This document shows positions 1-12,766 of a stretch of 64,000 nt of DNA, in pieces. The translations under genes were made by a program, and so were the position numbers. Numbering within the stretch: position 1 is the first letter of the stretch; every line of letters begins with the position of its first letter. The notes under the pieces were generated by a model that had not been told where the DNA came from, made no database searches, and saw only the letters and a list, made by a program, of their open reading frames with translations. The DNA is from Lichenicola cladoniae (lineage in GTDB: Bacteria; Pseudomonadota; Alphaproteobacteria; Acetobacterales; Acetobacteraceae). The stretch lies in NCBI RefSeq assembly GCF_013201075.1, contig NZ_CP053709.1, forward strand, positions 372,001 through 436,000, in the 5' to 3' direction.

Positions 1-127
1 CGATGCGGTCGTAGGCCGACGCTCCACGCAGTTGGTCACGCAGGACCGAATGGCCGAGATTTTCCCGGCGGGATGAGAACCGCCGCAGCCATGTCCTGTC
101 ATCGGAGGGAGCGGCGGGTATGTCCAT
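1..127 (-). CDS. Partial PLD/helicase-type protein, fourth gene of the DUF499 operon
   Basis: Only the first 42 codons are in the window; the gene continues past base 1. An ATG at 127-125 lies 6 bases after the DUF1156 stop and opens a clean frame. The peptide has an acidic and basic start (MDIPAAPSDD, then RTWLRRFSSRRENLG) and ends RGASAYDRI. In helicases with an N-terminal phospholipase-D-like domain, a phrase of this kind (YDRIAGYF) opens the PLD fold. DUF499/DUF1156 operons usually carry a large helicase with such a domain, so I infer that identity from position plus this short match. It would act as the DNA-remodelling or nuclease arm of the module. Confidence in a coding start is good, in the family moderate. 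Confidence 0.5.
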   Translation of the reverse strand, partial: MDIPAAPSDDRTWLRRFSSRRENLGHSVLRDQLRGASAYDRI

Positions 128-133
128 CGGTGG

Positions 134-3100
134 TCAGGCCATGATGCGGTCGATTGCCACGGCCCCCGCGAGGACCTCCGCCGCCGTGCATTCTGCCTCC
201 TTGCCCGGCGCCTTCCTGGCGGCCAGAAAGCGGGCGATCTCGATGATCGTCTGCCGCCGCTTCCAGTAGTCGGGTACCTCCTGCTGGAGGTAGCCGATCG
301 CCTTGCGGGCGTTGTCTTCCCCCATAACGGTGTAGATTCCAAAAAGGACGTGGCGCACCAGCGTGGAGCCGAAGTCGCCCTCGCCGAGATCCTGGCCCCT
401 GAAGTCGGCCGCCCATTTCAGGCGGGCATCGTTTGCATCGCCTCGTGCCAGCAATCGACGATGGTCGTCGAGGCCGAATGCACGGGCGAACTCCGCGTAT
501 GAGCTGAGTTCCTTGCCGCCGCCCGCCTCCACTTCGATCATCTTGAGGTAGAACCGGGCTTCGCGGGGCATGGCGTCCCAAGTGGCCTTCGATAGCCCGT
601 CGGGCACGAGGTAGTTGTTAGCAATACCGACGGCGCGCTCGATGAATGACTGAATCTCGGTCTTCTCGCCCTTCTTCCTCTCGCGCAGGACCTCGGCGCC
701 CACGTCCTTGCCCTCGATGGTCCCGTAGCCGGTGACAACGCGGAGCGCGGCTGCGTACGCCGCTAACTGCAGGTCCGCATCGGTGAAGTGCCTGGTTCCA
801 CCTTCGCCAACCGCGTCATCCAAGGCGTGCATGCCGCGGATCTGTGCCACGACTTCGTCCTCGACCTCCGCGAGGACATCCTCGGCCCACCCGTTGCGCG
901 CGTCGAGCCGCTTGCGCAGGACGAGGATCACCGTTCCCTGCACATAACTTCCCGCTGTAACGAACTTTTCCGTCTCGGTGACGACGCACCAAGCGGCTGT
1001 AACTCGTAGGCCGGCCGCCCAGAGGATCATTGCCAAGTCGGCCCATACCGAAGCATCTTGATGGGTAAACATAACGATCTGCTGACCGTCATCAGCCATC
1101 ATCTTCGTCATGGCGCGATATGCGCTGATCATCGAACGACGGAACTCAGTACTCTTGCCTTGGATTGCCAATGCGCGGCGGCTGTCCCATGGCCATCTTG
1201 CGAACGCACGCGGAGGATCGCGACGAAGCCATGCAATGAAGAACTCTGTTATCTCGTGGTAATGGATTGCATCCGCGTAGGGTGGATCAGTAATGTATAA
1301 GTCGCTGATAGTATGAACGTCATGTGCTGGCTCGACCCCTACAGATTTCCCAGTCTCGATGAATGATGGCCTTCGATAGCCCTCAGCCATGATATCTTGC
1401 AGGTAGCTGAATGTACGGCAGCCATAGTTGTAGAATGTTGTGAATGCCATGTTGTCGAACAACTGGGTGGGCTTGGCCCTGCCGGGATCCATCCTGCTCA
1501 GCCGCGTGCTGTGGTCCGCCATCTTGCAGAATACGACTGCCAACCCGGCCTGTACATCCTGCTCTGCCTCCTTGATCACCTCCTGCCGGTATAGGGCGAG
1601 CAGCAGTAGTTGCCTTGGATGGAACAAGTGATGCCAATGTGTCCAGCCCCGGCCGCGTATTACTTCAGTGGTCTTCGCGCCGGGCATGATCTCCATATCC
1701 GGAACAAATCCTTCGGCCTGCCAAGCCATCAGGTTTGTCCGGACGTAGTCCGCAACTTGTCGCTCCCGCTGCCAGTCAGAATTGTCCGGTGCGGTGTAGA
1801 GATCGGAGCCGTCCCTCGCACCGATCCAACGGATGCAGGCAAGCCGTTCTTGATAGATGTCTCCAAGCTGCGGCTCAATATCTTCAAGGGTCCATTGACG
1901 AAGCCCGTTAGTTCGCTCGCGTCCCACGCGGACGTCTCCGCGGACAGATTTTAGCGAACGCCGGTAGGTGACACCTGCGATGGTGTAAACTAGGTCATCG
2001 CCCTGACACGTGCCTGTTGCCGCCGATGCCATCTGCTCGTCGGTTGCTCCTACAATGCAGCACAAGTCGAAGCGCTTTTCGGCGTTGTCCTCAACTAGCT
2101 GGAGAACGACCTTCTTCCACTTGTGCACGATCCAGGTCGGTGACATCGGCACCATCCACCCGGTCGTGGGGCAGCGCGTCTCCAGGCAGTAAAGGAACGC
2201 CTTGGCGCGGTTGCGGTCGGCGTCGTGCTCAACCTCCATCTCGGTCAGGCGCCTGTCCACGGCCTTGCTCACGCGGTCCTGCGCCGCCGCCAGGCGTGAC
2301 CTGTATTCGTCGGTTCCGCCCACGACATTCAGCGCCGCCCAGGTCAACATCGCGGCGATCGGGTTCAGGTCGGTTGCCTCGACCTCGCAGCCCATGCGGG
2401 CGGCCTCGAACGGGATGCTCCCGCCGCCGGAGAACCGGTCGCTGACCCGGGGACGGTGCCCAAACCTCTTGATGCCTAGCTGTTCAACAAACTCGGGGGT
2501 CGAAGCCGCGGTCGTATCATAGTAAATGTTGATTTCAGCCCAAGCGGCGGGGTCGACCCACTCGTCCAGTTCCTCGGGTCGGAGGCAAAAGTCTAACTTC
2601 TGCCTGTAGGTCATTCGCCTGAACGCGAGCGCGTCGCCCTGCTTCCGCAGCGCCCGCCGGGCCGCGACCATTGGCGACCATCGGCGCGTGCCGCCGTCCG
2701 CGTCTTCATCCTCCTCGCAGACATCACCTACCACAGCTCTAAGAACCTCGATCGGCACTGAGCGCCAAGTTGGCTTCCCGTCCAGATCCTCGATCAGGGT
2801 ATCGGAGATGGGCCCTGGTAGGTGCCTTAGAGCGTAGTCGGCCGTGATAGATGACCGCCATTTCGCCTTAAGCCCATCCTCGAAGTGAACGGTCTTCTCA
2901 TCGGCGCTGAGGAAGGGGGCGGCCTCGTCGGCTTTCATCGTCGTGGTATGGCGGCGCCATAGGCTGGCGTCGTCCATGGCCATCAGGCGGAGGAACATCG
3001 CCATGTCGCGCGCGCGGCTGGCATCGTCGTCACCCGTGGCGGGCAGCAAGGAGGCCAGGACGCAGGCGTGGACCAAGATCAGCGGCTTGCGGCCTTTCCA

Positions 3101-3262
3101 GTAAGAACTGGTGGCGGTCAGCGTCTGATTGCCCTTGGAATCGCGTTCCACAAAGCTCTCGCTTGACAGCCGCGAAACGGGGAACACCGTCTCGATCAGC
3201 GACGGTGCCAGCGCGGACCATCCGGTCATGCCGGCGAGTGCCGAGGACAGGTCATGGGGCAT
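134..3262 (-). CDS. DUF1156-type adenine-specific DNA methyltransferase
   Basis: Large methyltransferase of 1042 residues. Counting from an upstream ATG at 3277, a SAM-binding segment FSGGGSIPFEA lies near residues 282-292, followed by a D-L-N acidic site (ATDLNPIAA), and the catalytic DPPY is at about 664-667 (YITDPPYADAIHYHEI). This is the order of the DUF1156 family of amino-methyltransferases. The start at 3262 is preferred because GGGAGG lies 5 bases upstream, whereas the ATG at 3277 has no such site. It overlaps the end of the DUF3780 gene by 11 bases. In anti-phage modules of this kind the methylase probably marks host DNA; that role is inferred from family and neighbours. The gene is intact. 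Confidence 0.88.
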   Translation of the reverse strand: MPHDLSSALAGMTGWSALAPSLIETVFPVSRLSSESFVERDSKGNQTLTATSSYWKGRKPLILVHACVLASLLPATGDDDASRARDMAMFLRLMAMDDASLWRRHTTTMKADEAAPFLSADEKTVHFEDGLKAKWRSSITADYALRHLPGPISDTLIEDLDGKPTWRSVPIEVLRAVVGDVCEEDEDADGGTRRWSPMVAARRALRKQGDALAFRRMTYRQKLDFCLRPEELDEWVDPAAWAEINIYYDTTAASTPEFVEQLGIKRFGHRPRVSDRFSGGGSIPFEAARMGCEVEATDLNPIAAMLTWAALNVVGGTDEYRSRLAAAQDRVSKAVDRRLTEMEVEHDADRNRAKAFLYCLETRCPTTGWMVPMSPTWIVHKWKKVVLQLVEDNAEKRFDLCCIVGATDEQMASAATGTCQGDDLVYTIAGVTYRRSLKSVRGDVRVGRERTNGLRQWTLEDIEPQLGDIYQERLACIRWIGARDGSDLYTAPDNSDWQRERQVADYVRTNLMAWQAEGFVPDMEIMPGAKTTEVIRGRGWTHWHHLFHPRQLLLLALYRQEVIKEAEQDVQAGLAVVFCKMADHSTRLSRMDPGRAKPTQLFDNMAFTTFYNYGCRTFSYLQDIMAEGYRRPSFIETGKSVGVEPAHDVHTISDLYITDPPYADAIHYHEITEFFIAWLRRDPPRAFARWPWDSRRALAIQGKSTEFRRSMISAYRAMTKMMADDGQQIVMFTHQDASVWADLAMILWAAGLRVTAAWCVVTETEKFVTAGSYVQGTVILVLRKRLDARNGWAEDVLAEVEDEVVAQIRGMHALDDAVGEGGTRHFTDADLQLAAYAAALRVVTGYGTIEGKDVGAEVLRERKKGEKTEIQSFIERAVGIANNYLVPDGLSKATWDAMPREARFYLKMIEVEAGGGKELSSYAEFARAFGLDDHRRLLARGDANDARLKWAADFRGQDLGEGDFGSTLVRHVLFGIYTVMGEDNARKAIGYLQQEVPDYWKRRQTIIEIARFLAARKAPGKEAECTAAEVLAGAVAIDRIMA

Positions 3263-3899
3263 GGCTCCCTCCCGCATTGGCGGCTAGGTCGATCCGCCCG
3301 GCTTTCGCTTGACTGCGAAACAGCCCCTGCGACTCGCGGTCACCCTCCCGGTCCTTGTCGCGGACGCGCCGTCCGGCCTTCGTCACTTGGCCCACTGGTC
3401 CCGAGACCGGGTTCTCCGTCATCGCTATCATTAGAGCCCGGCGCCACCCCATGTCCCTGTGGAGGAGTGCATCACCGGTCGCAGCCGCGGCGAGGCTATA
3501 TAGCGACCATCGTTGTTCCTGCGAGAGGCCGAGCCAGTTCGCTAGCGCTACAGGGATCTTCTCGACGGGTGCATTCTCGATCGACCACGCCAGGAGGACC
3601 AGTTCTTTGCCCAGCAGCCGGTCGATCGGGATGTCCCCCGATGTCCATCTTCCCGTCCGCATCCCCCGTGGCTTCAGGCGCCGGTTAAACTCCGCCCGGA
3701 CGGCGTCGGACACCTCGTTCCACCGGGAGCGCTCGACGATCGCGCGTACCACCCGGTCTCCCTCGGACTCGGATGTGCCCTGCGCGCCGTAATCCTCGAT
3801 GATCGTGACCGGGTCTCTGACAGCCCGCGAGATGCTCACTACGAACCGGTGCTCCTCGGCCGATCCAGAACCGCCGAAGCCGGCGCCGGACCCGCTCAC
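3252..3899 (-). CDS. DUF3780-type protein of the anti-phage module
   Basis: A 215-residue soluble protein with no signal peptide or membrane segment. It has the features I associate with DUF3780: an N-terminal FGGSGSAEEHRFVVSISR strand region, EFNRRLKPRG, DRLLGKELVLLAW near the middle, and ENPVS late in the domain, then a charged, low-complexity tail. The GTG start overlaps the DUF499 stop by 4 bases (GTGA), and the 3' end overlaps the methyltransferase start, so the three genes are translationally coupled. The biochemical role of DUF3780 is unknown to me; it is found in defence operons with DUF499 and DUF1156. Assignment is from memory of the family, not from a search. Confidence 0.78.
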   Translation of the reverse strand: MSGSGAGFGGSGSAEEHRFVVSISRAVRDPVTIIEDYGAQGTSESEGDRVVRAIVERSRWNEVSDAVRAEFNRRLKPRGMRTGRWTSGDIPIDRLLGKELVLLAWSIENAPVEKIPVALANWLGLSQEQRWSLYSLAAAATGDALLHRDMGWRRALMIAMTENPVSGPVGQVTKAGRRVRDKDREGDRESQGLFRSQAKAGRIDLAANAGGSHAP

Positions 3900-6800
3900 T
3901 GGACCACGTCCTTAACGTCGTACGCCTGGCCGATCGCGTTCGAGAACCCGTTCAGGTCAGTGCCGGTTTCGAAACTGACGACGGGCGCGGCTAGCGTCAC
4001 CTCCCCACCTGGGACCCTGGCCTGGAGGTCTGCAAGCACGCCCTCCATGTCCGACGCGGGCAGGCCCAAGCCTTCACCCATGACCAGGCTCGCGAATGCT
4101 TCCGAATCCTCCCTGCTGGTCACGTTGATCTCAAGTCCCATGATTGTCGCCTGGGCGTCCTTCGCCGCCTTGACAGCGTTGTAGGTGTCTTCAGTCGTCC
4201 GGAACTTGAGCCGCGCCTTCCATTTGGCGGGCCGGTTCGGATCGATTTCTGGCGCTTCGGCACCTCCACCTGTCCCGCTCCTTGGGGGGAAGCGGTAGGT
4301 TACCTTCTCCGACCTGACGCCCTCTCTCTCGGCAATCGCAGCGAAAGTGCATCCGCCGTCGCCGATTTCGATAGGCCCCGTGTACGGCGTGCCCGAGGAG
4401 GCCGGCTCGCTGTCATCCATCGTGAAGCGGATTGCGGCGCCTGGCGGTATTGAGGAGAGCGCCATCCGGCGGGTCGTGGCCCCGGATTGGGGGTCGATCT
4501 TCACCTCGATCTTGCCGGTCCAGTGCACGGGGTCCCCGGTCTCGTGATGGCCTTCCGTGCCGACGGTGTGCTTAGTGTCCACGCATAGGAACCACAGGGA
4601 CACCTTGTCGCTGTCCAGGACCTCCCCCGTCACGATGGGCGAGGCCGCCGAGACGCTGGAGGTCGGTGCCCAATGCACCCGGTCGCCATGGACGGCCTTG
4701 ACCTCCAAGCTCGTCTTTCCTGTCGTCTCATCCCGTGTCCGTGTCCTGCAGATGACCCCGGTCCGATCGGGCGGGAACGGGGGCTTCTCCACGTAGCCGC
4801 CGGGGTGGACGCGCCAAAGCTTTCGCACCTCGACGCACTGGTCGCGGATATGATCCAGGCCACGCGGCGGCAGCATCACGAAGCCCTGCTGCATCGCGGC
4901 GGCGCGCTTCACGTCGACCCAGGGCACGCGCTTGGCCGAGAACAGGTCGGATTCAATGCGCGTCCGCAGGCCGTCGAACTCGTCATCCACCTTAGGTCGG
5001 AACTTCCGGGCGTCGGTGAGGACCTTCTTGATCTGCTCTTCGCCATCGTAGTGGTTGGCGGCAAACGTCATCCGAACCGCGGCCGCGCGCAGGCCCCTGG
5101 CCTGGGGGTAGTAGACGGCCTTGAAGGTCTCGATGACATGCGTGCTGAAGGCGGCACTCTTGTCCTCCAGCAGGCGGCGCGCTTCCACAGCCTGCGGTGA
5201 ACCCTCCGCCAGGCGTTGGCGGTCGATGATGTCCTTCACGACGTCCTCGGCCGCCTTCAACTCGCGGGCCGCCATGTTAAGGTCCGTCATTCCTCCCGCG
5301 TCGCCAGTCAGAAACAACAGTCGGTTCTTATATTCCGCCTCTTCCCAAACCTTCTGCGCGACTGGGTTCAGGCCGTCCTGGTGCGGCTCGATGATGACGA
5401 GCAGCACCGCGTCCTGTTCGAGGACGATGCGGTCGGGGCTGGGAAGGGGGAGGACCCGCTGGTAAAGGTCGCGTTCAGTCGGCCCGAACATCGCCTCCAA
5501 CTTATCGCGCAACGTTCTCGTGACGACGTCGATGGTGTATCCGCCGGCCAGCGCGTTCAGCTTTGCCTGCACGTTCTCCGTTGGCGAGAAGTACCACCGG
5601 CCATCGCGGTCTCGGTGGAGATGGTTCGCCTTGGAGCGCAGCGCGTCCAGAGCTTCGCGGACGCCTTCCACCTTAGATCCCGGCGTGACCAGGCATTCCG
5701 TCAATTCCGGCTCAGTGAGTCCCACGACCGGGTTCGCAGCTGTAGACAAGGACGACATCAGCAGCAGGGTGGCCGCGGGTACCACGACATGGTGTCCGGA
5801 GGCGCCGTCCAGCGCCTCCGCCTTCGCGCCGCCGTTCGAGGCCACGTCGGTGGCAATCGCATTGCTGAGAGCGTCGTTAATCCGGCGCACCGCATTGACA
5901 GTCTGCGGATCGTTCAGGTCCGCGTGCTGGAAGCCGATGAGGAACGGGGCATCCTTCCGCCCGGGCTTTAGCACGGCGCGGGTGATCAGCCGCATCAGCG
6001 TGATCAGGTCGCGGGTCTGCTGGTAGCCCGGGTTCTCCCTGAATCTCGCTGCGATGTCCCGCAGCGATGGATGGAACGGATAGGAGGCGTGTATCCGTTC
6101 CTTGATGCTCTCCGGAGTGCCGACCACGACATCCATCGCCTTGGCCCGCTTCAGGGATTCGACGTACGCCTCGGCGACGTCCTCGACCTCCTGGCTCTGT
6201 GGTTGCGGGCATGATGCGAATATCCGCTTGCGGAGGATTTGGTAGATCTCGTCAGTGTTGAGGCGCACTGGGGAGACATCGACAGCCTGTCGGTTGGCCT
6301 CGCCTTCCATGTTCACCAGTGCCTCGGAGAGAAGTGCGGAGCCGCGCTGGTAGGTGTTCGTGAGGTCGGTGATAATCACCATCGCCCTGGGAAGCCCCGC
6401 CACGGCCACCATCAAGTTCGCGATCGCGCGCACCGTGACGCGAGCGAGATTGCTACTCCCGATGGAGGTCGACTCGGCGTTATCCAGATAGGTCGGCAAT
6501 TCGTCGAAGGCGATCACGACTGGGGCGTCGCCGATGAGCCTCTGCCAGTCGTTCGGCGATGGGGCGCTGGCGACCGGTCTATAGAATGGTTCGAAGATAG
6601 CGGCCTTCCTGAGACGCTCCGCGATATACCCCCAGAGGTACGTAGGGTAGTTCTCCCGGCCATCGACCGCGACGACGTCGGCATCGCCAAACCCGTCGGC
6701 AAACGGGCTATCGGGGACTATGCTGAGCCGCGTCTCCGCCGAAGCCGCTAGGAGTCCAAACGCGATGACGGTGTGGGTCTTGCCTCCGCCCATGCCCTGG

Positions 6801-7018
6801 GTGAGCTTGAAGACGCACTTGCCGGACTTCCCGGCCAGGCGTTCGAATCCTTGGTCGAACAGCCCCTGCATTCCGCCGGTGGTATGGTTGTTCGCGAAGA
6901 AGTCGGCCGGGGCGATGTTGTTGCTGATGAAGTCCTGGAGGTTCTCCACGCGGTCCAGCAGACTGTCGTCGTCGACGGTCTCGTTCGCCTTGCAGAGGTC
7001 CTTGACCGTCCCGACCAT
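3896..7018 (-). CDS. DUF499 P-loop ATPase, first gene of the anti-phage-type operon
   Basis: A 1040-residue protein. The N-terminal third is an ATPase domain with Walker A GMGGGKTH at residues 75-82 and a Walker B-like segment VVIAFDEL ending near 174. A late segment (about 840-890) with SSIPPGAAIRFTMDDS resembles a small beta-rich accessory domain. The glycine-rich GMGGGKTH loop is characteristic of DUF499. The ATG at 7018 has GGGAG 6 bases upstream. A sigma-70-like promoter lies about 55-80 bases upstream, so this is the promoter-proximal gene. In BREX-like and related systems large ATPases of this kind drive the complex; here that is inference from family. The gene shows no disruption. Confidence 0.87.
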   Translation of the reverse strand: MVGTVKDLCKANETVDDDSLLDRVENLQDFISNNIAPADFFANNHTTGGMQGLFDQGFERLAGKSGKCVFKLTQGMGGGKTHTVIAFGLLAASAETRLSIVPDSPFADGFGDADVVAVDGRENYPTYLWGYIAERLRKAAIFEPFYRPVASAPSPNDWQRLIGDAPVVIAFDELPTYLDNAESTSIGSSNLARVTVRAIANLMVAVAGLPRAMVIITDLTNTYQRGSALLSEALVNMEGEANRQAVDVSPVRLNTDEIYQILRKRIFASCPQPQSQEVEDVAEAYVESLKRAKAMDVVVGTPESIKERIHASYPFHPSLRDIAARFRENPGYQQTRDLITLMRLITRAVLKPGRKDAPFLIGFQHADLNDPQTVNAVRRINDALSNAIATDVASNGGAKAEALDGASGHHVVVPAATLLLMSSLSTAANPVVGLTEPELTECLVTPGSKVEGVREALDALRSKANHLHRDRDGRWYFSPTENVQAKLNALAGGYTIDVVTRTLRDKLEAMFGPTERDLYQRVLPLPSPDRIVLEQDAVLLVIIEPHQDGLNPVAQKVWEEAEYKNRLLFLTGDAGGMTDLNMAARELKAAEDVVKDIIDRQRLAEGSPQAVEARRLLEDKSAAFSTHVIETFKAVYYPQARGLRAAAVRMTFAANHYDGEEQIKKVLTDARKFRPKVDDEFDGLRTRIESDLFSAKRVPWVDVKRAAAMQQGFVMLPPRGLDHIRDQCVEVRKLWRVHPGGYVEKPPFPPDRTGVICRTRTRDETTGKTSLEVKAVHGDRVHWAPTSSVSAASPIVTGEVLDSDKVSLWFLCVDTKHTVGTEGHHETGDPVHWTGKIEVKIDPQSGATTRRMALSSIPPGAAIRFTMDDSEPASSGTPYTGPIEIGDGGCTFAAIAEREGVRSEKVTYRFPPRSGTGGGAEAPEIDPNRPAKWKARLKFRTTEDTYNAVKAAKDAQATIMGLEINVTSREDSEAFASLVMGEGLGLPASDMEGVLADLQARVPGGEVTLAAPVVSFETGTDLNGFSNAIGQAYDVKDVVQ

Positions 7019-7051
7019 ACCCGTCTCCCGGCGCGGCCGCCTCGATGACGG

Positions 7052-7088
7052 TGTTCCACTATCCTACATTAATGATAAATGTGGAACA
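7052..7088. promoter_or_regulatory. Inverted repeat overlapping the DUF499 promoter, candidate operator
   Basis: Perfect 8-base arms TGTTCCAC (7052-7059) and GTGGAACA (7081-7088), with a second inner pair ACATT/AATGT. The palindrome covers the -10 box and part of the spacer, so a dimeric repressor bound here would block the promoter. No regulator gene for it is in view. Confidence 0.5.
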
Positions 7089-7100
7089 GTGACTTGACAA
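7072..7100 (-). promoter_or_regulatory. Sigma-70-like promoter of the DUF499 operon
   Basis: On the minus strand TTGTCA (7100-7095) is followed after exactly 17 bases by TATCAT (7077-7072), a near-consensus -35/-10 pair, about 55 bases before the DUF499 start. It is the only strong promoter seen in the 322-base gap 7019-7340. Confidence 0.6.
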
Positions 7101-7603: not shown

Positions 7604-8449
7604 CTATGGATTCAGTAATTGCTGGAGAAAGCTGCGTTCCTGGCGGCGGTAACGCGTGCGACCTTTGGGGGCATACGGGCTGTCCTCAGGCGGCGGCAGC
7701 GTCATGGTCACCTGCTTGACGCTGTCAGAGAGAGCCGGAAATGGGTCGACGTGGACCGCCTGGATCAAGACCGCAACTGAAACCGCGTCGCAGGTCGGGG
7801 TTTTGGTGTTCTTGCATACATAAACGCCTGCTTCTCCAATCCGCGGATCGTAGATCGCCTTCCACGTCGAACTGGGCACGAGGACGCCCCCAGGGCCGAT
7901 CGATTGAAGTTGCTCGCCATAGAAGGCCGGGCCTGTCACCACGTAGAGTTCACCGTCCCTGCCGGCGAGATCACGAACGGCGGTCTCCACGCCCTCCCAC
8001 ACGCCACGATTAAGCTCGGCCGTCTGCGGCACGACATTGGCGAGGGAGAAAGTTTGCTGCTGCGCCATCTCATCCGGCGCATCCCCAGATGGTGTCATAT
8101 GCCCGCGGTCGAATCCGCTTCGACGATAATCGGCAAGTTGCGCCTGGTCGCCCGGGGGCAGCCGGTCTTCCGTATGAAACTCACCCCGACGACGCATCTG
8201 GCGGGCCTGTTCGAGCGAAGCTCGGGTCAGGTGCTCCGCCGACCAGAGTGGGCCGTGAGTAACGCCCGACGCCAGCACGGCATAAGCATCGTTGCACAGC
8301 ATCGTCGTCCGCTGCTCAAGTTTTGAGTTGGTAAGCGCCGGAGCTTGCCCGCCTAGAAACGAAAGCGCGCAGCTGGCGTCCTGGGCCATAGCGGCAACCG
8401 GGTTCAGGTAAGCCAGAAGGGCGAACGGCAAGAAAATAAGGGTTTTCAT
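7604..8449 (-). CDS. Secreted DNA/RNA non-specific endonuclease (NUC1 family)
   Basis: A 281-residue protein with an N-terminal signal peptide (MKTLIFLPFALLAYLNPVAA, cleavage probably after AMA near residue 22). The active-site DRGH lies at 114-117, with His117 as general base, and the metal-site Asn is in VPQTAELNRGVWE near 147. This matches the beta-beta-alpha metal nuclease fold of the NUC1 family, which cuts DNA and RNA without sequence preference. The start at 8449 is chosen over an upstream ATG at 8524 because only this one exposes the signal peptide; neither has a strong ribosome site. It would act in the periplasm or outside the cell. It lies 93 bases after the UvrD-like gene, same strand. 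Confidence 0.85.
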   Translation of the reverse strand: MKTLIFLPFALLAYLNPVAAMAQDASCALSFLGGQAPALTNSKLEQRTTMLCNDAYAVLASGVTHGPLWSAEHLTRASLEQARQMRRRGEFHTEDRLPPGDQAQLADYRRSGFDRGHMTPSGDAPDEMAQQQTFSLANVVPQTAELNRGVWEGVETAVRDLAGRDGELYVVTGPAFYGEQLQSIGPGGVLVPSSTWKAIYDPRIGEAGVYVCKNTKTPTCDAVSVAVLIQAVHVDPFPALSDSVKQVTMTLPPPEDSPYAPKGRTRYRRQERSFLQQLLNP

Positions 8450-8542
8450 GCGCAAACGGTCCCGCGCAGATGTAACGATGGTCTGGTATGGGTTATTTCC
8501 AAGATTGATCTGCTCACAATTCATGATTGACGGTCACTCGAC

Positions 8543-10627
8543 TTAGAAACGGCGCAACAGTTCCAGAGTGTCCAGTTCAGCGAACGCCCTGGATGAAATG
8601 CCAACCGGACGGGGCGACTTCATGCTTTGGCTATGCAGCCAGCCCATGACCCGGTTTGCCGCCGGAATGTCGTCGATGAAGCATGACGGCCTGGTGAAGC
8701 CGCGGCGATATTCGACATGCGTGATGCTGACGCGCTGCATGCCCCGCGTCAGTGCCACGTACGCAAGCCGTCTTTCCTCGTCATGGTCGCCGTACGTGCT
8801 GGGAAACGTCGAGGCGTCCCATCCCGGCAGGAACACGTGCGGAAACTCCAACCCCTTGCCTTTGTGCAGCGTCATGAGTTGCACACGGCCCTCGGTCGCC
8901 TCGCCGGGTGCAGCGCTTGCCAGGGCGGCATGATCCAGCAGGTCGGCCGCATTGTGAAAGCTTCCTGCCAGGGTGACCAGTTCCTGCAGGTTTTCCATGC
9001 GATCTTCGGTCTCTTCGGCCCGGCTGGCACGGAGCATCTCGCGATATCCAGTGCGGTCGAGCAGCAGAGAGATTTGGTCTGCCAATGTGCCGGTGTCGTT
9101 GCGGCCGACCGAACGGATCGCATCGACAAAGCTCAGGATGGCCACTCTTGCTTTGGGCGGTAGTTTGGCGGTCTCGACTGACTGCAGCAGGGACACCCCG
9201 CGGAACGCGGCTTCCAGATGGATTTCCTCAAGCGCCTTCGGGCCGATCCCGCGCGGCGGTGTGTTGCAGACGCGTCGGAATGCCTCGTCCGATTGAAAAT
9301 CATCGGGGCGGGCGGCAAGGCGTAGCAAGGCCAAGGCGTCCTTGATTTCGGCACGTTGATAAAAGCCGACATCGCCGACAATGACGTAGGGCACCCGGCT
9401 ACGCATGAGGGCCTCTTCGATACCGCGCGACATATGGTTGGAGCGATACAGCACGGCGATCTGATCCCAGGAGACCCCAGCACTCCCACGGCGTCGGATC
9501 TCGGCCGCGATGCCGGCCGCCTCGCCTTCGGCGTTGTGGAAACCAACCACCTCGATCGGTTCGCCAACAGCTTTGGTCGTGCGCAAGGTCTTGCCGAGCC
9601 GTTTCTTGTCCTGCGCAATCACGGCATTGGCGGCAGCAAGGATATGGCCGGTAGAGCGGAAGTTGTCTTCCAAGCGCACCTGACGCGATGATGGAAAATC
9701 ATGTTCGAAGCGCCGGATGAACGTGATGTCCGCGCCGCGGAAGGAATAAACGCTCTGGTCATCGTCGCCGACAACGAAGATCTCTCCATGATCGGCGGCC
9801 AGCAGCCGCAACCAGGCGTACTGAACATAGCAAACGTCCTGATATTCGTCGGCCAGGATGCAATCGAACCGGTCGGCCCACCGGCGTCGATAAGCCTCGT
9901 CGCGCTGCATGGTTTTGGTCGGCCATAGCAGGAGATCGCCGAAGTCGGCGGCGTTGGCCTCGCGCAAGCGGCGCTGATACTCGATGTAGATGCGCGCTGC
10001 CAAACGCATACCGATCGGGTCGATCGTACCGTGGGTCGCCTTGGCCTGAGCGATCATCGCCTCGACGCGCGCAGGCGCCTCATCTGGCGTGATGAGATTG
10101 TCCTTGAACTTACCGATCCGATTGCAAAGCTGCTTCAACGGATCACTGCCGTCGCCTGCATCTTCGGGCGACACGTTCATCGCCTTCAAGGTGCGCTTGA
10201 CCAGGCGCTTGCTGTCGTCGGCGTCGAGGATATCGAAGCCTGGCCGCAATGCGGCCACCTCGGGCTCGATGCGCAGCTGACGGGCGCCAAGGCCATGGAA
10301 TGTTCCAACCCATGACGGGACGCTTTCTCCCACCAGCATGCCGCGGATCCGGTCAGCCATCTCCTTGGCGGCCTTGTTGGTGAACGTCACCGCCAGGATG
10401 CGCGCCGGCGGTACTCCGCGCAGGGCGATGCGCGACGCCACACCCGCGGTCAGGGTTCGTGTCTTCCCCGTGCCTGCGCCAGCCAGCACCAGCACCGCAC
10501 CCTGCAGCATCGCCGCTTCTGCCTGGGTGGGCGTGAGCCCGTCCAGGATCGCCGCCATCCGCTCGGCTCGAGCCGATGGGTCGGCAGTGTGCACGGTCAA
10601 ACCGTTCATCTCATTGAATTTCGACAT
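8543..10627 (-). CDS. UvrD/Rep-like superfamily 1 DNA helicase
   Basis: A 694-residue helicase with Walker A AGAGTGKT at 49-56, Walker B ILADEYQDV, motif III/IV VVGDDDQSVYSFRGAD, and a C-terminal YVALTRGMQRVSITH motif VI. The order and spacing match 3'-5' SF1A helicases; the length is close to that of UvrD. It lies inside an operon with a Toprim protein, an HD hydrolase and a nuclease, so it more likely serves mobile-element DNA processing or repair than being the chromosomal uvrD. It overlaps the HD gene by 17 bases and has a GGGGG stretch before its ATG. Intact. Confidence 0.9.
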   Translation of the reverse strand: MSKFNEMNGLTVHTADPSARAERMAAILDGLTPTQAEAAMLQGAVLVLAGAGTGKTRTLTAGVASRIALRGVPPARILAVTFTNKAAKEMADRIRGMLVGESVPSWVGTFHGLGARQLRIEPEVAALRPGFDILDADDSKRLVKRTLKAMNVSPEDAGDGSDPLKQLCNRIGKFKDNLITPDEAPARVEAMIAQAKATHGTIDPIGMRLAARIYIEYQRRLREANAADFGDLLLWPTKTMQRDEAYRRRWADRFDCILADEYQDVCYVQYAWLRLLAADHGEIFVVGDDDQSVYSFRGADITFIRRFEHDFPSSRQVRLEDNFRSTGHILAAANAVIAQDKKRLGKTLRTTKAVGEPIEVVGFHNAEGEAAGIAAEIRRRGSAGVSWDQIAVLYRSNHMSRGIEEALMRSRVPYVIVGDVGFYQRAEIKDALALLRLAARPDDFQSDEAFRRVCNTPPRGIGPKALEEIHLEAAFRGVSLLQSVETAKLPPKARVAILSFVDAIRSVGRNDTGTLADQISLLLDRTGYREMLRASRAEETEDRMENLQELVTLAGSFHNAADLLDHAALASAAPGEATEGRVQLMTLHKGKGLEFPHVFLPGWDASTFPSTYGDHDEERRLAYVALTRGMQRVSITHVEYRRGFTRPSCFIDDIPAANRVMGWLHSQSMKSPRPVGISSRAFAELDTLELLRRF

Positions 10628-11546
10628 GACACCCCCAGCCCGATACGCGGATCAATTCCTCATCGGTCGTGAAAACAGTGAACTGGCCGTCGAGCACCCA
10701 CTGGCCGTCGTCATCACGGTCACCGCCGACGATCACGCCTTCGATGTGCTGCTGCGAGATATCCTCGGTCTCGACAGAGACGAATGTGTCGGTCAGGCCA
10801 TTACCGGTTACCGGACACGCACAGCGGCGCTGCTTGGCTGGCGGCAGCCGGGAGAAGGCTGCTCCAAGGCGGGCCAAAGTCGCCTCGCGCTCGATCGCCG
10901 CCGTCAGGTCAGCGGGAGCTTCCAGGCTGTCGGCTCCGACAAGCTCCCGCAGTTTGGCCAGGAACACGGCGGCCGCGCGGCGCGGCGCCCATGGCTGCCA
11001 CGGCAGGCACCCCTCGAGGCACGGCATCGGATCCGTCATCACCGGGCTCATGTGAATGCCGAGCATTTCGTGCACGGCGTCGCGTGCCCAGCCGGCCACG
11101 TGCAAAGCCTCGGAGGCGGCGGCCAGATGATCGGCGCGCTTATGCAGGAGGTAGTCCTCATGCGACCAGTCGGGCAGCCGGTAGCGAACCGCGATGGCGT
11201 GCTGCAGGCGCTGGGTCAGGGCGGCAAAGTCATCGCCCAGGTGCGGCTTGAGCGGTGAGATTGGGTCGAAGCCGAGCAGCCCTTCATCCGCATCGTGCAG
11301 CAGCTCGCGCAGTGCCTCGCCCGGTGTCAGCGGCTGATGCGGCTGCATCTGCTGGCGTAGCACCAACACCAGCAAGCTGTGCTGGGCCACGGACAGCGGC
11401 AGGTCCCAGTGTGAGTGACCACCCCAGCGGTAGGTGCGGGACAGGCCGACCGCCAGGTCCATGTCCTGCCAGTCGTCCGGCTGTGGGTCGACAAGATTCA
11501 AACGGCGGCCGGAGCCCAACAGCACCCAGGCGCGATCGGGCCTCAT
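10611..11546 (-). CDS. HD-domain phosphohydrolase (YfbR-like)
   Basis: A 311-residue soluble protein. The N-terminal 200 residues carry an HD metal site: His56 (VAQHSLLV), His84-Asp85 (LLHDADEGLLGFD), and an Asp in the later helix. The VAQHS and LLHDA blocks are typical of YfbR-like 5'-nucleotidase/HD hydrolases. The C-terminal 110 residues form a separate region with a Cys pair (RRCACPV) and an acidic stretch, of unknown role. It overlaps the Toprim gene by 4 bases and the helicase by 17, so it is mid-operon. Substrate is unknown; a nucleotide is likely from family. Confidence 0.75.
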   Translation of the reverse strand: MRPDRAWVLLGSGRRLNLVDPQPDDWQDMDLAVGLSRTYRWGGHSHWDLPLSVAQHSLLVLVLRQQMQPHQPLTPGEALRELLHDADEGLLGFDPISPLKPHLGDDFAALTQRLQHAIAVRYRLPDWSHEDYLLHKRADHLAAASEALHVAGWARDAVHEMLGIHMSPVMTDPMPCLEGCLPWQPWAPRRAAAVFLAKLRELVGADSLEAPADLTAAIEREATLARLGAAFSRLPPAKQRRCACPVTGNGLTDTFVSVETEDISQQHIEGVIVGGDRDDDGQWVLDGQFTVFTTDEELIRVSGWGCHVEIQ

Positions 11547-12499
11547 GAAGACCTCCCCTGCTTGAGCACGTCGTTCCAGTCCTTCAGTCCGTGCAGTGGC
11601 AGCAAGCGTTCAGAGCCAACCCCCGCCGCTTGCGCCATCTCGATCAGCCGGGCGGCGTAGCCGTCCCCGGCCCGGTCATTGTCGGTCGCGGCGACCAGGA
11701 CACCTCCCGGTCGTTCTGAAAGCTCTCGAAGCTGCAGCTCGAGGGCTGTCAGCGTTGCCGGACCCATGCCACCTGCCGTCGCAAGATAGAGCGTGTCAGC
11801 ACGCAAGCGCTCGACGGTCGCGATGCTCATGGCGTCGATCGGCGCCTCGGCCACCACCAGACGGCGCATCGGAACGCTGCTGTTGGGGAGTTTCCCTGGC
11901 AACCGGAACAAGGTCTTCTCGCCGCCCGGGCTGAAGCCACGGTACTCAGGGCCGCGCATTTCGATCCCGGTCAGTCCGCCGTCGTGGTCATGGTGAGCAA
12001 ACCAGGCGCTGGCGTAGGGGCCCTCGCGGAGAACCCCGGCATAAACAGCGGCAAGAATCGTGGGCGTCGGCAAGCGACGCTGCTCCGTCAAGTAGCGCCA
12101 GGTCGGCGATCCCCGCGCGGGCCGGCGTCGGCTGTTCCACTTCACATCAAACGGCACGACCGGTCGTGGTGGTGCCGAACGAGCTTCGTGCACTGGGTAG
12201 GATGGACTCAAACCAACAAACGGGCGCAGCAGCTTGCGCACCTCGCCGAAGTTCAGGCCGGGATTGAGATACTGCACCAGGCCGAAGACATCGCCCTTCG
12301 CGGTGCTGCCTGGGTCCCACCAGCCCCGTCCCTCATGGGTGACCAGCAGGATCTCGCCGGCCGCCCTGCGGTATTTCAGGCAGTGGCGGGTGCTCTCCTT
12401 CTTGTCCAATTGCCAGGGTGGCGGATGCCGTTCCAGCAACACGGCACAACTGACCCCTGCCCTCATCTGCTCCAGCTCGCCATCATGACCGTTCATCAT
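11543..12499 (-). CDS. Toprim-domain protein with N-terminal zinc-finger-like/DUF3991-type region
   Basis: A 318-residue protein. The N-terminal half (LLERHPPPWQLDKKEST, GDVFGLVQYLNPGLNFGEV) resembles the primase-like N-terminal domain of plasmid Toprim proteins. The C-terminal half carries the Toprim signature: the acidic site VVAEAPIDAMS, then a glycine-rich turn (TAGGMG), and the DND metal site AATDNDRAGDGYA. It probably acts as a primase-like or topoisomerase-like enzyme in element replication. The start at 12499 is favoured over 12607 because AGGACAGGAG lies 5 bases upstream; a second ATG follows directly. It is the first gene of the operon that ends at 7341. Confidence 0.8.
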   Translation of the reverse strand: MMNGHDGELEQMRAGVSCAVLLERHPPPWQLDKKESTRHCLKYRRAAGEILLVTHEGRGWWDPGSTAKGDVFGLVQYLNPGLNFGEVRKLLRPFVGLSPSYPVHEARSAPPRPVVPFDVKWNSRRRPARGSPTWRYLTEQRRLPTPTILAAVYAGVLREGPYASAWFAHHDHDGGLTGIEMRGPEYRGFSPGGEKTLFRLPGKLPNSSVPMRRLVVAEAPIDAMSIATVERLRADTLYLATAGGMGPATLTALELQLRELSERPGGVLVAATDNDRAGDGYAARLIEMAQAAGVGSERLLPLHGLKDWNDVLKQGRSS

Positions 12500-12557
12500 C
12501 CGCACTCCTGTCCTTTGAATACGATCCGACGATCGCGTGCCGCGGACGGGACAAGGG

Positions 12558-12574
12558 CGCCTGCGCAGCAGGCG
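12558..12574. repeat. Short GC palindrome in a divergent intergenic region
   Basis: Perfect 7-base arms CGCCTGC and GCAGGCG around a 3-base loop, located between the Toprim operon (leftward) and the gene starting at 12767 (rightward). It could be an operator or a hairpin; there is no T-run. Confidence 0.35.
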
Positions 12575-12766
12575 GGAGCACTGGCGACGCACCCTTGTGG
12601 CGGCCAAGGCGCAAGCGATAGCGGCATTCTCATCCCCATATTTGCCGATCCTGGCTCTAGCCTCAGGTGGCTTGGGGCGAACGGCACCTCTAAATCCGTG
12701 CCTTCGGCTGCTATTTTCGTTCGCGCCGAACCAAGCAAGGCTTCAGCAAAGCAATGGGAGACGACT

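What the first reader, a model, noticed from the sequence alone, without database searches (positions are those of the whole stretch)
1..7100. Four-gene DUF499-DUF3780-DUF1156-helicase operon, a restriction-like anti-phage module
The ATPase (Walker A GMGGGKTH), the DUF3780 protein, the DPPY methyltransferase and the start of a PLD/helicase-type protein are coupled by overlaps of 4 and 11 bases and a 6-base gap, under one promoter. Seen: the motifs, order and coupling. Established: these families co-occur in defence islands and the combination resembles BREX/DISARM in its ingredients. Inference: the set is a complete defence system that marks self DNA and blocks phage. The function of DUF3780 and the mechanism are, to my knowledge, poorly described.
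Basis: partly seen in the sequence, partly recalled or inferred. Interest (0 to 1): 0.72.

Follow-up and report, generated by a model that had tools for sequence, protein, structure and literature searches.

The report
Four-gene BREX-related phage defence operon
The genes look like a complete copy of a recently described bacterial anti-virus system of the mark-self, attack-foreign kind; its least understood protein usually ends in a short tag that resembles the tags proteins use to grip the DNA-copying machinery, and stray copies of that protein on viral sequences lack the tag.

Summary
Window 1-7018 (- strand) holds a DUF499 AAA+ ATPase, a DUF3780 protein, a DUF1156 methyltransferase and the start of a PLD-SNF2 helicase, whose rest, read from the contig left of base 1, is intact (921 aa). 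Order, overlaps (4 and 11 bases) and 6-base gap are confirmed. The nearest relative shares exactly these four genes and nothing found in its flanks. The kind is known: it fits the published 'Type-2 BREX-related (BR) system' (Nucleic Acids Res., January 2026); PADLOC and NCBIfam hold models for all four proteins (two NCBIfam cut-offs are missed). Best reading: restriction-like defence; the methyltransferase sets specificity (variable block before DPPY), the ATPase assembles the complex, the nuclease-helicase attacks foreign DNA. Function is untested.

New here: DUF3780 has a conserved core and a disordered tail with LF or QLxLx[LIF] in 32 of 38 in-operon copies, resembling sliding-clamp-binding peptides; only 10 of 38 match the strict consensus, and the window's own does not. 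Eight stray copies on phage or predicted viral contigs lack it. This suggests, without proof, that DUF3780 tethers the system to replicating DNA and that tailless copies are decoys.

The parts
3896..7018 (-). DUF499 AAA+ ATPase, 1040 aa, with one FnIII-like region near the C terminus (residues 848-907)
   Evidence: Pfam PF04465 1e-25, Fn3_assoc 2.5e-09; PADLOC DUF499 1.2e-207 over 4-1040; NCBIfam NF042962 871 bits, below its 1200 cut-off
3252..3899 (-). DUF3780 protein, 215 aa: globular core to about residue 165, low-confidence (disordered) tail after it
   Evidence: Pfam PF12635 1.4e-49; AlphaFold2 115 residues at pLDDT 90 or more, block means 45-52 from residue 171 on
3318..3332 (-). SQGLF (residues 190-194), the window protein's version of the tail LF motif; does not fit the clamp-binding consensus
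   Evidence: alignment A1, L193 nearly invariant; SQGLF also in L006
134..3262 (-). DUF1156 DNA methyltransferase (FSGGGS ... DPPY), 1042 aa; variable block before DPPY taken as target recognition domain
   Evidence: NCBIfam NF042963 1262.8 bits, cut-off 1000; PADLOC DUF1156_MTase over 24-1040; variability profile; DNA alignment gaps
1..127 (-). start of the PLD (HxK...GSxN) - SNF2 helicase, 921 aa; whole gene at G000:C2:369362-372127 (L002:16363-19128)
   Evidence: Pfam; PADLOC PLD_Helicase 1.3e-276; NCBIfam NF042964 1147.2 bits, cut-off 1100
7072..7100 (-). sigma-70-like promoter TTGTCA-17-TATCAT upstream of the ATPase
   Evidence: 10 of 12 matches; chance 1.6 per region
7052..7088 (.). perfect 8-base inverted repeat flanking the -10, candidate operator; not seen upstream of the 18 relatives printed

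Best explanation
The locus is a complete Type-2 BREX-related (BR) system, probably carried as mobile cargo. The DUF1156 methyltransferase reads a DNA sequence and methylates adenine there to mark self. The DUF499 ATPase, with DUF3780 as its partner, assembles the scanning complex. The PLD-SNF2 helicase moves on and cuts DNA that lacks the mark. Shown: the four genes, their motifs, their behaviour as one unit, and a strongly variable block in the methyltransferase just before DPPY. Inferred: methylation, restriction and the division of labour. Added here as an inference: the disordered tail of DUF3780 docks the complex onto a partner through a short LF or QLxLxL-like peptide; the bacterial sliding clamp is my leading single candidate, so that the system would act on replicating DNA.
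For: Full-length or near full-length profile matches for all four proteins. Gene order ATPase > DUF3780 > methyltransferase > helicase on one strand in 17 of 22 loci examined (L009's helicase is cut by the edge of the stretch; three of the 17 have one gene split into two frames); the other 5 lack a gene in the stretch held. DNA shared with the nearest relative L006 starts within the first six ATPase codons and ends at the helicase stop; L006's flanks (about 3.6 and 2.1 kb) show no DNA or protein similarity to C2:353000-402000. In three groups of relatives (7, 7, 4 loci) the 100-120 residues before DPPY fall to 0.29-0.46 identity; in two groups they are the least conserved part of the methyltransferase, in the third they tie with other blocks. 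DUF3780 and DUF1156 searches hit the same 19 of 72,556 plasmids. The published description matches gene for gene.
Against: No activity was measured. NCBIfam's cut-offs are missed by the ATPase (871 of 1200) and DUF3780 (164 of 200), as by the relative L006 (875; 171), so this is a divergent lineage. Target and methylated base are unknown. Variable blocks also occur elsewhere: helicase down to 0.45, ATPase C-terminal part 0.55-0.60. For the tail: 10 of 38 copies match QxxLF or Q[LM]xLx[LF]; in 4 of the 7 exact QxxLF copies (L008, L011, L012, L017) the match lies at the start of the tail, not its end; the window's SQGLF does not match; 6 of 38 have neither LF nor QLxLx[LIF] (three rhizobial copies L014, L016, L019, and L020, L034, L035). 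LF also occurs in 18 of 38 cores.
Confidence: 0.75

Rival explanations
1. DUF3780 is a reader of modified bases that replaces the TUDOR domain missing from Type-2 BR helicases, as proposed by Rakesh and Krishnan; the tail is an ordinary flexible end.
For: Fusions of DUF3780 to RAMA and ASCH/PUA domains and the missing TUDOR are reported in PMC12839542 (section 30). The core is strongly conserved (15 invariant columns over 28 sequences).
Against: The tail motif is above chance and is not explained by this. No fold match to a reader domain came up, which is inconclusive.
Confidence: 0.3
2. The tail docks onto another protein of the same complex (for example the ATPase), not onto the sliding clamp.
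For: Most copies lack the glutamine at motif position 1; what is conserved is often only [ST]LDLF or LF. A docking peptide inside the complex would be conserved in the same way. Proteus phage Pm34 carries the ATPase C-terminal piece next to a DUF3780 core, which hints at contact between these two.
Against: The end switches between pentapeptide and hexapeptide forms as known clamp motifs do; 7 exact QxxLF and 3 exact Q[LM]xLx[LF] copies exist among 38.
Confidence: 0.4
3. The stray DUF3780 genes on phage or predicted viral contigs are chance captures without function.
For: Pm34 gp5-gp4 look like one captured stretch spanning the ATPase 3' end and the DUF3780 5' part.
Against: Five (Pm34, L033, L043-L045) end cleanly, with no tail remnant that I could see in the three frames downstream. 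The six strays included in alignment A7 keep its invariant core residues. L043 and L044 sit near Sak4- or Bet-like annealing genes, L033 near a terminase.
Confidence: 0.35
4. The locus is decayed or silent in this host.
For: Low scores for two components; the neighbouring resolvase-like gene matches only part of its family.
Against: All four reading frames are intact, with the expected motifs.
Confidence: 0.1

Closest known systems
Type-2 BREX-related (BR) systems (Rakesh and Krishnan 2026, PMC12839542)
   Same: Same four genes: DUF499 ATPase with FnIII-like region, standalone DUF3780, DUF1156 methyltransferase, HKD/PLD-SNF2 helicase
   Different: Nothing in the gene set. Clamps are not mentioned there (no occurrence of clamp, PCNA, DnaN, PIP-box, replication fork, sliding)
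PADLOC models DUF1156_MTase, DUF3780, DUF499, PLD_Helicase (PDLC02189-PDLC02193)
   Same: Matches to all four proteins
   Different: No mechanism is attached in the tool's output
Hma (Type-1 BR): HmaA helicase, HmaB methyltransferase, HmaC ATPase
   Same: Homologous ATPase, methyltransferase and helicase (partial PADLOC hits)
   Different: Per PMC12839542 Type-1 has no DUF3780 and its helicase usually carries a PD-(D/E)XK nuclease instead of an N-terminal PLD domain
Type 3 BREX
   Same: Related BrxC-like ATPase, adenine methyltransferase and SNF2-type helicase (PMC12839542)
   Different: No PglZ found among the proteins scanned here
DISARM
   Same: SNF2-type helicase resembling DrmD, PLD nuclease and methyltransferase as ingredients
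   Different: Helicase far below the DISARM cut-off (NF038317 143 of 610 bits); no operon protein is best matched by a DISARM model

Membership tests
Type-2 BR system | DUF499-type AAA+ ATPase with Walker A and B | tested here: met
   Pfam and PADLOC; motifs
Type-2 BR system | tandem FnIII-like domains before a C-terminal RRM (tandem FnIII reported for 53% of taxa) | tested here: inconclusive
   one FnIII-like region matched at 848-907; a second copy and the RRM were not tested
Type-2 BR system | standalone DUF3780 gene in the locus | tested here: met
   PF12635 1.4e-49
Type-2 BR system | DUF1156 N6-type methyltransferase | tested here: met
   PF06634; NF042963 above cut-off; DPPY. That it methylates N6 of adenine is not testable here
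Type-2 BR system | SNF2 helicase with N-terminal HKD/PLD nuclease in place of TUDOR | tested here: met
   PLDc_2 at 65-186, SNF2 at 259-440, Helicase_C at 712-816; NF042964 above cut-off
NCBIfam 'anti-phage' equivalogs NF042961-NF042964 | all four proteins above the curated cut-offs | tested here: not met
   met by NF042963 and NF042964; missed by NF042961 (164 of 200) and NF042962 (871 of 1200)
BREX (types 1-6) | PglZ and BrxC genes in the locus | tested here: not met
   none among the four operon proteins, 11 neighbours or 10 further window ORFs; not every flanking ORF was scanned
DISARM | DrmA, DrmB, DrmC | tested here: not met
   helicase far below DISARM cut-offs; no operon protein best matched by a DISARM model
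sliding-clamp-binding proteins | consensus QxxLF or Q-phi-x-[LM]-x-[FL] peptide in an accessible segment | tested here: inconclusive
   QxxLF or Q[LM]xLx[LF] in 10 of 38 tails, LF in 25 of 38; the window's own SQGLF misses the consensus
sliding-clamp-binding proteins | physical binding to DnaN | not testable with these tools
   no binding assay, and the structure tool takes single proteins or alignments only

The most novel reading that the evidence does not exclude
DUF3780 is a tether that couples a restriction-like immune complex to the replication sliding clamp, so that the system meets DNA as it is being copied. Phages carry tailless DUF3780 cores as decoys that occupy the complex without delivering it to the fork.
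Probability: 0.3. Interest if true: 0.75.

Novelty: new member of a known kind. Interest (0 to 1): 0.45.

Why it matters
BREX systems are reported to restrict phage by inhibiting phage DNA replication (PMC13326643 abstract), and DUF499 has been found homologous to origin-recognition ATPases (PMC7641849 passage), but how such systems meet replicating phage DNA is, to my knowledge, open. A clamp-type peptide on the one protein unique to Type-2 BR systems would make that question directly testable: one peptide, one partner, one mutant. If the stray viral copies are decoys, they would be a class of anti-defence protein recognisable by the missing tail.

Tried and rejected
Fold of DUF3780: two AlphaFold2 models (full; residues 6-165). 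Foldseek gave nothing at E 0.001 or below in PDB or in viral models (full model only). VIA-align's best row was Borrelia Pur-alpha: Z 4.7, rmsd 3.5, 65 aligned residues for the full model, but Z 3.2 and tied with unrelated rows for the core model; I do not claim a PUR fold. No PDB sequence relative up to E 1.

Archaeal test: archaeal DUF3780s would show whether the tail becomes a PCNA peptide. I could not reach archaeal genomes: the one genome-contig scan found one bacterial relative. L035's QMTLDQFL looks like a PCNA peptide (Qxx[I/L]xxFF in PMC9690074), but the host of that contig is not known; its neighbours looked bacterial to me.

Independent check of the tail: six genomes of another, unnamed class of the phylum, found afterwards, gave LF in 3 of 6 tails (shuffle mean 0.70, P 0.02; 0.04 by the earlier rate) and an exact consensus in 1 of 6, at the start of the tail. 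The signal held but weaker than in the first set. A looser four-position score reached 3 or more in 15 of 21 representatives, but also in 5.25 of 21 shuffled tails on average and in 7 of 21, 5 of 19 and 3 of 18 ends of the other proteins: a poor discriminator. The revised published consensus (Q-phi-x-[LM]-[FL], with or without one extra residue) matches 4 of 38 DUF3780 ends and 1 of 32 helicase ends.

Regulation: the inverted repeat at 7052-7088 is not seen upstream of the relatives printed.

Other classes: 0 of 13 genomes (class of G500) and 0 of 48 (class of G389) have DUF3780. Centring on G600 drew the window's own class again (1 of 385, the G116 already known).
Full report
OBSERVATION. The window is G000:C2:372001-436000. 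On the - strand it holds an ATPase (3896-7018), a DUF3780 protein (3252-3899), a DUF1156 methyltransferase (134-3262) and the first 127 bases of a fourth gene. The flank fetched as L002 overlaps the window exactly and completes that gene: 921 aa, PLD-like domain at 65-186, SNF2 at 259-440, helicase C-terminal domain at 712-816. The junctions read as described: GTGA overlap, 11-base overlap from the ATG at 3262, 6-base gap.

WHAT IT IS. PADLOC matches the four proteins with the models DUF499 (4-1040), DUF3780 (6-194), DUF1156_MTase (24-1040) and PLD_Helicase (14-921). NCBIfam's models call them anti-phage or anti-phage-associated; the methyltransferase and helicase pass their cut-offs, the ATPase and DUF3780 do not, and the same two fall short in the nearest relative. 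A 2026 paper (PMC12839542; outline, passages, sections 29 and 30 and one part of the reference list seen) defines 'Type-2 BR systems' by this gene set and reports them in 1120 taxa. Five other held papers mention DUF499; of these I saw passages of PMC7641849 and PMC8713573 and the outline and abstract of PMC13326643. I found no held paper that tests a Type-2 BR system; only one holds the word DUF3780.

A UNIT. The closest relative found, L006 from a Rhodospirillales metagenome-assembled genome, has all four genes at 69-82% protein identity. DNA similarity starts within the first six ATPase codons and stops at the helicase stop; L006's flanks (about 3.6 and 2.1 kb) show no DNA or protein similarity to C2:353000-402000. 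Of 22 loci examined for gene order, 17 show ATPase, DUF3780, methyltransferase and helicase in this order on one strand (L009's helicase is cut by the edge; L014, L015 and L019 have one gene split into two frames). Five do not: L208, L211, L212 and L010 have no helicase in the stretch held (L010's methyltransferase is also truncated, with transposases behind it), and L209 has a helicase before the ATPase and no methyltransferase before its contig ends. DUF3780 and methyltransferase searches hit the same 19 plasmid records of 72,556. The family is sparse: 2 of 385 genomes of the window's class and 2 of 398 of its phylum (both counts include the window's own genome), 6 of 368 of another class, 0 of 13 and 0 of 48 of two more, and 32 of 5426 E. 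coli genomes with an Acinetobacter DNA query.

SPECIFICITY. In three groups of relatives (7, 7 and 4 loci) the 100-120 residues before DPPY have 0.29-0.46 mean identity in 40-residue blocks. In two groups they are the least conserved part of the methyltransferase; in the third, blocks at 281 (0.38) and 81 (0.42) are as low. A second variable stretch lies near residues 81-160 (0.42-0.64). Elsewhere dips are milder: helicase 0.45-0.62, ATPase C-terminal part 0.55-0.60, and the DUF3780 tail 0.46-0.50 in two groups. The DNA alignment with L006 breaks inside the methyltransferase gene, at about codons 109-272 and 492-665. This is what a target recognition domain would look like, and it points to the methyltransferase as the specificity subunit.

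DUF3780. AlphaFold2 gives a confident core and a low-confidence tail from about residue 166-170; no fold match was convincing. The tail varies in length (17-54 residues counted from 8 past GWR) but carries a recurrent motif. Of 38 copies with ATPase and methyltransferase alongside (window included; near-identical ones not removed), 25 have LF in that tail and 32 have LF or QLxLx[LIF] (counted from GWR; the same total in the last 25 residues, 45 for the window). The six without are L014, L016, L019 (rhizobial), L020, L034 and L035. Of 21 representatives under 75% identity, 18 have LF or QLxLx[LIF], against 4.17 in shuffled tails (maximum 11 in 2000). The last 25 residues of the other three proteins show it in 0 of 38, 0 of 35 and 0 of 32. 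LF also occurs inside 18 of 38 DUF3780 cores, so LF alone is not rare in this protein. The pattern LF was noticed on the first 17 sequences, and the hexapeptide form was added after the viral loci were seen, so the broader pattern is partly post hoc.

CLAMP READING. Published motifs for the bacterial sliding clamp are QL(S/D)LF at the C terminus (PMC9690074, passages), QxxLF and, in DnaE3 polymerases, xxxLF (PMC12309361, passages), and Q-phi-x-[L/M]-[F/L] or with one residue inserted (PMC13254535, passages). Exact QxxLF occurs in 6 of 21 representatives (shuffle mean 0.165, maximum 2 in 5000) and QxxLF or Q[LM]xLx[LF] in 8 of 21 (mean 0.20, maximum 3), against 0 of 58 C-terminal 60-residue ends of the other proteins. 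Against the reading: over all 38 only 10 match; in four of the seven exact QxxLF copies (L008, L011, L012, L017) the match lies at the start of the tail, where it could be part of the last core helix, while their ends read TLPLF, TLGLF or SFDLF; most copies lack the glutamine; the window's SQGLF does not fit; and of six copies found later three have LF and one an exact match, also at the tail's start. PMC12309361 cites that losing Q weakened one clamp peptide about five-fold while QLDLF bound about a hundred-fold more tightly, so [ST]LDLF could still bind. The 2026 BR paper does not mention clamps. Searches for sliding clamp with anti-phage defense (15 of 55 papers listed) and with BREX (10 of 204 listed) listed no paper that links BR systems to the clamp; I saw only those listings, and passages of PMC13244154.

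STRAY COPIES. Eight DUF3780 homologues were found without a methyltransferase or helicase in the stretch held: L033 with a terminase 1.5 kb away, L043 and L044 with Sak4- or Bet-like annealing genes nearby, L045 (close relative of L044), L187, L191, L199, and gp4 of Proteus phage Pm34 beside gp5, a piece of the ATPase C terminus. All but Pm34 are IMG/VR contigs, i.e. predicted viral; the same collection also holds operons with ATPase and methyltransferase (L023-L042 apart from L033), so viral origin is not shown for each. L044, L187 and L199 lie near a contig end, so missing genes could be off the contig. Pfam confirms DUF3780 in the four tested. None of the eight has the tail motif; five end 8-15 residues after GWR, three carry unrelated ends. 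Fisher's test gives P 1e-5 over all copies and 0.003 over lineages, but the copies are not independent.

VERDICT. The locus is a sound, apparently complete member of a published kind. The tail motif and its absence from stray copies are, as far as these searches show, new observations about the one protein that defines the subtype, and they lead to simple tests.

Noticed in passing
L002:12937-15060 (+), left of the window: GmrSD-type (GmrSD_N and GmrSD_C) modification-dependent restriction enzyme in one 707-aa frame, 1.3 kb beyond the end of the operon, so the stretch may be a small defence island.
   Followed up: partly
L002:15746-16429 (-): Serine-resolvase-like gene directly after the helicase; the profile match starts at position 48 of 145, so the catalytic N-terminal part appears to be missing.
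   Followed up: no
L002:77-8707: Two tyrosine recombinases, a large protein with weak methyltransferase hits and an ArdC-type antirestriction protein: signs of a mobile element to the left.
   Followed up: no
window 7604-12607 (-): Right neighbours include a DNA/RNA non-specific endonuclease, a UvrD-like helicase and a DUF3991/Toprim protein.
   Followed up: no
window 7052-7088: Perfect 8-base inverted repeat flanking the -10 of the operon, at one place in the genome: candidate operator without a known repressor.
   Followed up: partly
window 16262-47785: Among ten ORFs scanned, four are transposases: one IS110, two IS66, one DDE group 1.
   Followed up: no
L047 (Proteus phage Pm34) 9440-10528: Phage carries a piece of the ATPase C terminus (residues 847-1038) and a tailless DUF3780 core as adjacent genes.
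   Followed up: partly
L008, L009, L010: Toxin-antitoxin genes sit between the operon genes: VapC before the helicase in L008, a PHD antitoxin and VapC before the methyltransferase in the two Deinococcus plasmids.
   Followed up: no
L014, L015, L019: Helicase (L014) and ATPase (L015, L019) are split into two frames in these plasmids; in L015 the FnIII-like part is a separate annotated gene.
   Followed up: no
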